Source: Candidatus Micrarchaeum sp. (lineage in GTDB: Archaea > SpSt-1190 > DYHY01). Taken from it: DNA of 7,103 bases. The notes beneath the pieces were generated by a model. It worked only from the letters and a program-made list of their open reading frames with translations. It was not told the DNA's origin and searched no databases. Location of the stretch: positions 18,100 to 25,202 of the forward strand of contig DYHY01000006.1 of the NCBI GenBank assembly GCA_020723935.1. The letters are read 5' to 3'. Made by a program: the position numbers and the translations under genes. Shown here piece after piece: positions 120-4,053 of the stretch (position 1 is its first letter; each line of letters starts with the position of its first letter).

Positions 120-126
120 TTATAAC
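119..126 (+). promoter_or_regulatory. TATA box of the candidate small RNA
   Basis: CTTATAAC is a strong archaeal TATA-box match in a GC-rich setting. At usual spacing it would start transcription near 149. There is no plausible start codon there, but 149 lies 11 bases before the first paired base of the branched structure at 160-260. The core TTATAA is palindromic, so leftward firing toward the window start is also possible. The bases upstream on the plus strand are a GC hairpin rather than the purine-rich BRE expected, which weakens the plus-strand reading. Confidence 0.4.
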
Positions 127-148: not shown

Positions 149-270
149 GTTCACCCACTCCAGGAAGCGGACCTTCCGGAATTCCGCCGGGCAGCCGGCG
201 GGAAGGCTGAAACTGGCGGGCAATCCCCGCCCAAAGGCCCGGGAGGTCCGCCATGCCTGGCTTCATTTTT
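149..270 (+). ncRNA. Candidate structured small RNA with a three-way junction
   Basis: A long-range stem closes the element: CCAGG (160-164) pairs with CCTGG (256-260). After a small internal loop, GCGGACCT (167-174) pairs perfectly with AGGTCCGC (244-251). Inside sit two perfect hairpins. CCGCCGG (184-190) pairs with CCGGCGG (195-201) across GCAG, and GGCGGG (215-220) pairs with CCCGCC (226-231) across five bases. A T-run (266-270) follows the closing stem by five bases, and a TATA box lies about 26 bases before 149. Promoter, fold and T-run together suggest a transcript of about 120 nt. I checked for tRNA, 5S rRNA, SRP RNA and RNase P RNA signatures and found none that fit. The fold is seen in the sequence; strand, ends and function are inferred. 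Confidence 0.35.
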
Positions 271-306
271 CCAGCGGCCCGATCCCTCTTCCGTCCCTTC
301 AGTTGC

Positions 307-404
307 GGCGCGGTCGGACCCACGGCCGACGCCGGACCTCGCTGTGGCTCTGCCCCGCTCCTTCAGGAGCGGGAGTGCTCCGCAAAGCATCCGTGCCGCA
401 GCAC
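307..404. other. Further hairpin-rich noncoding stretch
   Basis: Consecutive stems fill this segment. GTCGG (313-317) pairs with CCGAC (326-330), flanked by GGC (307-309) with GCC (331-333). CCCGCTCC (354-361) pairs with GGAGCGGG (366-373) across the loop TTCA, a perfect 8-bp stem. GTGCT (375-379) pairs with AGCAC (400-404). Reading frames through here give arginine- and proline-rich translations with no family resemblance, so I see no gene. It may continue the candidate RNA at 149-270, form a separate RNA on either strand, or be a cluster of palindromic elements. Confidence 0.4.
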
Positions 405-427
405 CGGAAAAGCGCGCCTCACATAAA

Positions 428-1092
428 TTACCTGCCCGCAACCCCCGCCCCTTTAGGGGCAGGTAGTTCAGAGGCGCAGAAGCCAAGGGCCGCTCCCGCC
501 GAAATCAACGGGGCTGCCGCCCCCTCGCGAGCGGCAGGTTCACATCCTTCCGCCGAAGAAGGGCGAGCCGTGGGGTCCGCCGAGAATGTAGGGGTCGTAT
601 CCCGGGGGTGGCTCGCGAAGAAGTCGGCCCAGACGTCCCTGGGTTTCTCGCCGCGGCCGATGTAGGCCGCCGCCCGGTTCGCCGCCCCGACGACATCCCT
701 CATCGCCGCCGAATAGGGGCCCATGCTTATGAACGGGATCCTGCGCCTCGCCGGGTCGTATCCCGCGCAGATTTTCACGAAAACGCTCGTCGGATCCGCC
801 TCGGGAGAGAGCGCTACGGAAACCTCCACCCTCTCGCCCACGATTTCCGCGGGAGATCGGCCTTCGCGCGTGCCACGCGCTCGTCGTAGTTAGTCCGCGA
901 GCCTCTCGCCCGCGCTCGTCAGGAGGAATTCCAGGTCGACGGAATATGCCATGCGGACCGTCCCTTGTCCTTCGTCTCGGTCACGGCGGCCCTGCTGGCT
1001 TTCCTCGCGCGCCCCATCGCCTCGTAAGCCTCCTGTTTGAGGCCGGCGTCTTCTAGGCTGCTCACTACAAGCTTTCCGGGATATCTGAACAT
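428..1092 (-). pseudogene. Unrecognised gene broken by three one-base frame changes
   Basis: I do not recognise this protein. Coding-like segments line up end to end only if the frame shifts three times. They are 1092-958 (45 codons, starting MFRYPGKLVV), 958-893 (22 codons, containing MAYSVDLEFLL), 891-847 (15 codons, NYDERVARAKADLPR), then 847-431 to a TAA (139 codons, containing FVKICAGYDP and FISMGPYSAAMRDVV). The implied changes are a lost base, an extra base and a lost base. Joined, the product is about 221 residues. Codon choice in each segment (CTC, GTC, GCG, AGG) matches the intact neighbours. The last 45 or so residues are Ala/Pro-rich and may not be original. GGAGA lies just before the ATG at 1092; in-frame ATGs at 1140 and 1143 are alternatives. 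Decay and sequencing error both fit. Confidence 0.4.
429..465. repeat. Inverted repeat with 9-bp arms at the end of the minus-strand gene
   Basis: TACCTGCCC (429-437) is the exact reverse complement of GGGCAGGTA (457-465). A competing inner hairpin is GCCCC (447-451) with GGGGC (456-460) around TTTA. The repeat covers the last codons of the broken minus-strand gene and touches the AT-rich sequence ACATAAATTA (421-430), the only AT-rich spot nearby. It could act in 3'-end formation of the leftward gene or be an insertion or binding site. Confidence 0.5.
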
Positions 1093-3615: not shown

Positions 3616-4053
3616 ATGGAGTTTGGGAAGCTGGCCCGCCAGATTCCTTTGCTGCTCGTGTCTCCGGCTCTTGCAGTCTCCTTTCCAGACCGCCTCGCGG
3701 GAAGCCTGATATCCGCGAATTCCTCGTTCGCCTCGGCCGCGGGCGGCGAATGAGCCTCCGGCAGTCCCGTCACCCTCGTCCAGCCTCTAAAGATCAATGT
3801 CACGATCCCCTTCTTCAGCCCCATCAACTTCTACAAGAACAGCGGAAAGCTCGCCCTCGTCATCCTCTTCCTCCCCGATACCCCGACGGAATGGCTTGCC
3901 TCCGACGTCATGCACGCCCAGGTCTACGACGCCGACACCTGCGAGCTGGTCGAGTCCGTGATGAACCTCGACAACGTGGAAACCGGCAGCTCCTTGGACT
4001 CCGTCTACTGCTCCTGGCGAAACGTGGCTGCCAGGCGTTCGGCATATTCTTAA
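3616..4053 (+). pseudogene. Small predicted exported protein interrupted by an in-frame TGA
   Basis: Function unknown. From the ATG at 3616 the frame runs 145 codons to the TAA at 4051, broken only by TGA at codon 46 (3751-3753). The first part has a basic start (MEFGKLARQ) and a hydrophobic run, IPLLLVSPALAV (10-21), as in a signal peptide or membrane anchor, then a Ser/Ala/Gly-rich linker. The TGA falls in that linker. The part after it looks like a folded extracellular domain: alternating hydrophobic strands (KINVTIPFF; LALVILFLP), two cysteines (109 and 132) that could form a disulfide, and a basic tail. No in-frame ATG restarts translation until residue 99. A leaderless promoter precedes it. 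A recent nonsense mutation, a base error (TGA for GGA would give Gly) or read-through all fit. rnz also ends in TGA, so genome-wide reassignment is unlikely. Confidence 0.5.

What the first reader, a model, noticed from the sequence alone, without database searches (positions are those of the whole stretch)
149..270. Candidate stand-alone structured RNA with promoter, three-way junction and T-run
A TATA box, a closing stem of 5+8 bp and two internal perfect hairpins (7 and 6 bp) are followed within five bases by TTTTT. The parts are ordered as a complete transcription unit of about 120 nt. The fold fits none of the RNA classes I could test by eye (tRNA, 5S, SRP, RNase P). The pairings are seen; transcription and function are inferred.
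Basis: partly seen in the sequence, partly recalled or inferred. Interest (0 to 1): 0.6.

Follow-up and report, generated by a model that had tools for sequence, protein, structure and literature searches.

The report
Orphan structured RNA gene candidate, archaeon
A 120-base stretch in the genome of an uncultured archaeon has the start signal, strong fold and stop signal of a small RNA gene, but no relative was found in about 390 other archaeal genomes, so it is a good but unproven one-off candidate of unknown function.

Summary
Window 149-270 (+) folds at -66.3 kcal/mol into a three-way junction: a 5-bp and a 13-bp closing stem, a 9-bp arm, and a 3+6-bp arm. A TTATAA box lies at 120-125 and TTTTT at 266-270. 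The fold beats dinucleotide shuffles (z about -4.3, 2 of 1000 as stable). Only 1 of 17,192 background windows from about a third of the same genome scores as low, and that one is a tandem-repeat array. TTATAA followed within 60-260 nt by TTTTT is rare (7 cases in about 344 kb, both strands); this locus has the most stable fold of them. No reading frame here looks coded. Rfam finds nothing, and the genome's 5S, RNase P and SRP RNAs lie elsewhere. The organism belongs to Altiarchaeota. No homologue was found in its own genome (no second copy), nine other members of its phylum, or about 390 archaea in all, so covariation could not be tested. Best reading: an orphan, independently transcribed, structured small RNA, probably a protein-bound scaffold because it has little unpaired sequence. 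Transcription and function remain inferred. Rivals: a 3'-UTR or terminator structure of the upstream KaiC-like gene, or a decayed palindromic element. An unrelated MITE-like repeat sits next door at about 297-472.

The parts
120..125 (+). TTATAA box, candidate archaeal TATA element; expected start site about 145-150
   Evidence: the same motif stands about 30 nt upstream of several tRNA genes of this genome, e.g. CTTATAAAG before tRNA-Phe and GTTATAAACC before tRNA-Pro; TTATAA occurs only 0.08 times per kb
149..159 (+). unpaired 5' tail GTTCACCCACT
   Evidence: no excess of complementary sites in the sampled genome
160..260 (+). three-way-junction RNA fold: 160-164/256-260, 167-179/239-251, 182-190/195-203, 206-208/236-238, 215-220/226-231
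266..270 (+). TTTTT, candidate U-run terminator
   Evidence: TTTTT occurs 0.59 times per kb; U-rich tracts mark archaeal 3' ends (PMC7515710)

Best explanation
149-270 (+) is an independently transcribed, non-coding structured small RNA of about 110-125 nt. It would be started by the TTATAA box at 120-125, fold into a rigid GC-rich three-way junction, and end at the T-run at 266-270. Because nearly all of it is paired and its 5' tail has no enriched targets, it more likely acts as a protein-binding scaffold or decoy than as an antisense regulator. The box, fold and T-run are shown. Transcription, ends and mode of action are inferred.
For: Fold beats shuffles and ranks first in the window and second against 17,192 windows of the genome. 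TTATAA followed by TTTTT at 60-260 nt occurs 7 times in about 344 kb, this case having the lowest energy per base; two of the others follow tRNA-Pro and histone-like-gene promoters. All frames tested over it score like wrong frames, not like genes, and none matches Pfam. Plus-strand asymmetry agrees with the T-run. 5S, RNase P and SRP RNAs lie elsewhere, so it is not one of those.
Against: No homologue in any genome searched and no second copy, so no covariation and no sign of selection. No transcript data. Choosing TTATAA and TTTTT as the signature was done after seeing the locus. The flank is rich in palindromes, including a repeat element 30 nt downstream.
Confidence: 0.55

Rival explanations
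1. It is the 3'-UTR or terminator structure of the upstream KaiC-like ATPase gene, whose stop codon is read at 20-22: the transcript reads on, folds and ends at the T-run. The TTATAA box would be chance.
For: The KaiC-like gene runs toward the element on the same strand (and stop at 20-22), and the T-run follows the stem.
Against: The T-run is about 245 nt beyond the stop, with a TATA-like box in between. Archaeal terminators do not need a hairpin (PMC7515710), so such a large junction would be superfluous.
Confidence: 0.2
2. It is a relic of a palindromic mobile element, like the neighbouring repeat at 297-472, now present once.
For: The flank 290-480 is an interspersed hairpin-bearing repeat with other copies in the genome, so this intergenic space does accept insertions.
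Against: 149-270 has no second copy in its genome, and no IS200-type transposase or TnpB zinc-ribbon match was found in that 91%-complete genome.
Confidence: 0.13
3. A chance GC-rich fold with no function.
Against: Rank 2 against 17,192 background windows, plus the rare box and T-run in the right order.
Confidence: 0.12

Closest known systems
5S rRNA (RF00001)
   Same: about 120 nt, three-way junction with a closing stem
   Different: no Rfam match here at gathering score or E <= 10; the genome's 5S is at C32:9147-9263
Archaeal RNase P and SRP RNAs (RF00373, RF01857)
   Same: stand-alone structured RNA genes of the same genome
   Different: found elsewhere, at C2:34504 and C6:8904; size and fold differ
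Archaeal H/ACA guide RNAs
   Same: stable stem-loops
   Different: no ACA box after the closing stem (3' tail CUUCAUUUUU) and no obvious kink-turn; judged by eye
Archaeal intergenic sRNAs (general kind)
   Same: own TATA-like box, intergenic, U-run end
   Different: no homologue and no expression evidence here

Membership tests
Rfam families (any) | score above the family's gathering threshold | tested here: not met
   no match in the window; best permissive match over the locus is DUF3800-IV on the minus strand, 19.1 bits against 60.7 needed
5S rRNA | match to RF00001 | tested here: not met
   absent here; true 5S elsewhere
RNase P RNA (archaeal) | match to RF00373 | tested here: not met
   single genomic match at C2:34504-34762
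SRP RNA (archaeal) | match to RF01857 S domain | tested here: not met
   single match at C6:8904-9027, below cut-off but with E 1.5e-8
H/ACA sRNA | ACA box just 3' of the hairpin, kink-turn in the upper stem | tested here: not met
   read by eye: no ACA after 260 on the plus strand
tRNA or tmRNA | ARAGORN model | tested here: not met
   0 genes in the window
Independently transcribed archaeal sRNA | TATA-like box about 25 nt before the start, U-run at the end | tested here: met
   (sequence signals only)
Independently transcribed archaeal sRNA | a discrete transcript | not testable with these tools
   no RNA-seq available
Conserved structured ncRNA class | homologues with compensatory changes | tested here: inconclusive
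   no homologue in 394 genomes; the weak model hits lie in coding DNA with broken stems, so nothing to count

The most novel reading that the evidence does not exclude
A new class of stand-alone structured RNA confined to one Altiarchaeota lineage, working as a protein-bound scaffold.
Probability: 0.15. Interest if true: 0.55.

Novelty: new member of a known kind. Interest (0 to 1): 0.3.

Why it matters
If transcribed, it would add a non-housekeeping structured RNA for Altiarchaeota; the one literature search made here for RNAs of this phylum turned up no dedicated study. Without relatives or expression it is one of many possible orphan sRNAs, so its weight is modest.

Tried and rejected
Missing housekeeping RNA: rejected, since 5S, RNase P and SRP are all elsewhere. 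Protein gene across the locus: rejected, since frame scores resemble wrong frames and there is no Pfam match. DNA hit in G009 (84% over 31 nt): lies inside a coding frame on the other strand and has no protein-level counterpart in the window, so chance. Covariance-model hits in G093, G132 and G003: the G093 and G132 hits lie in coding DNA with broken stems, and the G003 hit is weak (18.5 bits) with many broken pairs; chance. Syntenic site in relative G001: CCA-adding enzyme, RNase Z and TYW1 keep their order, but the upstream DNA is different genes with no such element. Antisense targets of the 5' tail and loops: no enrichment. Phage and plasmid collections: no match. A 14-base exact scan of viral contigs was too unspecific to mean anything. 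Merging 149-270 with 290-480 into one RNA: the first domain folds identically with or without it and the second is a separate dispersed repeat.

Full report
Setting. The window is contig C29:18100-25202 of a 1.14-Mb, 91%-complete archaeal assembly. Its nearest relative in the held set, same family, is G001. G001's CCA contig has the same length and the same match as GenBank record JAUXGB010000056.1, 'Candidatus Altiarchaeota archaeon isolate CSMAG_2918', so the organism is placed in Altiarchaeota. The window carries an archaeal CCA-adding enzyme, RNase Z, TYW1 and an M24 peptidase. Upstream is a KaiC-like ATPase gene (named by eye, no family search run), interrupted by ten N just before the window; a frame ending in TAG at 20-22 is its likely end.

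Observation. 149-270 folds into a three-way junction at -66.3 kcal/mol, with the centroid identical and pair probabilities near 1. It is more stable than shuffles (z -4.2 to -5.6 depending on the bounds). It ranks first in the window (the -6.03 there rests on only 60 shuffles and is an overestimate). By a dinucleotide regression it is beaten by only 1 of 17,192 windows from about 337 kb of the same genome, that one being the CCCGGGGGGCTT-type tandem array at L055:12041. The background was sampled every 40 bases and the window every 10, a small bias in its favour.

Transcription signals. TTATAA at 120-125 resembles the boxes before tRNA-Phe (CTTATAAAG) and tRNA-Pro (GTTATAAACC) of this genome, about 30 nt from the tRNA 5' end. 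It is rare (0.08 per kb), as is TTTTT (0.59 per kb). Only seven TTATAA sites in about 344 kb, both strands, have TTTTT 60-260 nt later, and the locus has the lowest folding energy per base among them. U-rich tracts without a required hairpin mark archaeal 3' ends (PMC7515710). The signature was chosen after seeing the locus.

Identity. No Rfam family matches. The genome's 5S, RNase P and SRP RNAs lie elsewhere and ARAGORN finds no tRNA. Frames over the locus score like wrong frames. No homologue was found: own genome, class and phylum, 394 archaeal genomes by covariance model, phages and plasmids. The few weak hits are in coding DNA or have many broken pairs. The G001 locus keeps CCA-RNase Z-TYW1 but has other DNA upstream.

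Mechanism. The most likely reading is a stand-alone structured sRNA. With 72 of 101 bases of the core paired and no enriched complementary sites for its tail or loops, a protein-binding scaffold or decoy is more plausible than an antisense role. This last step is inference only.

Neighbour. 297-472 is a separate dispersed repeat. Copies at L003 and L005 share its ends (AGTTGCGGCGC ... GGTAGTTCAG), and its terminal hairpin keeps pairing despite sequence changes among the three copies (read by eye), as in non-autonomous hairpin transposons; no Y1 transposase or TnpB zinc-ribbon match was found.

Noticed in passing
window 297-472: MITE-like dispersed repeat ending in a CCCTTTAGGG-type hairpin and GTAGTTCAG; relatives at C3:8948, C29:28972 and partial ones at C1:132100 and C29:46580. 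The hairpin keeps pairing through sequence changes between copies.
   Followed up: partly
window about 520-1092, minus strand: A probable hypothetical gene broken over more than one frame (MFRYPGKLVVSS... and ...VALSPEADPTSVFVKICAGYDPARRRIPFISMGPYSAAMRDVV...), either a pseudogene or assembly errors.
   Followed up: no
window 3616-4053: A 146-codon frame with one in-frame TGA after codon 45, a pseudogene, sequencing error or read-through.
   Followed up: no
L007 5091-5100 (just before window position 1): Ten N interrupt the 3' end of the KaiC-like gene, a scaffold gap or masked stretch.
   Followed up: no
L055 12041-12160: Tandem array of GGGGGGCTTCCC units in an intergenic region, the most foldable window sampled in the genome.
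   Followed up: no
L040 7985-8825: Several tRNA genes with long apparent introns (tRNA-Tyr spans 164 nt; one read by ARAGORN as a stop-anticodon tRNA of 109 nt).
   Followed up: no
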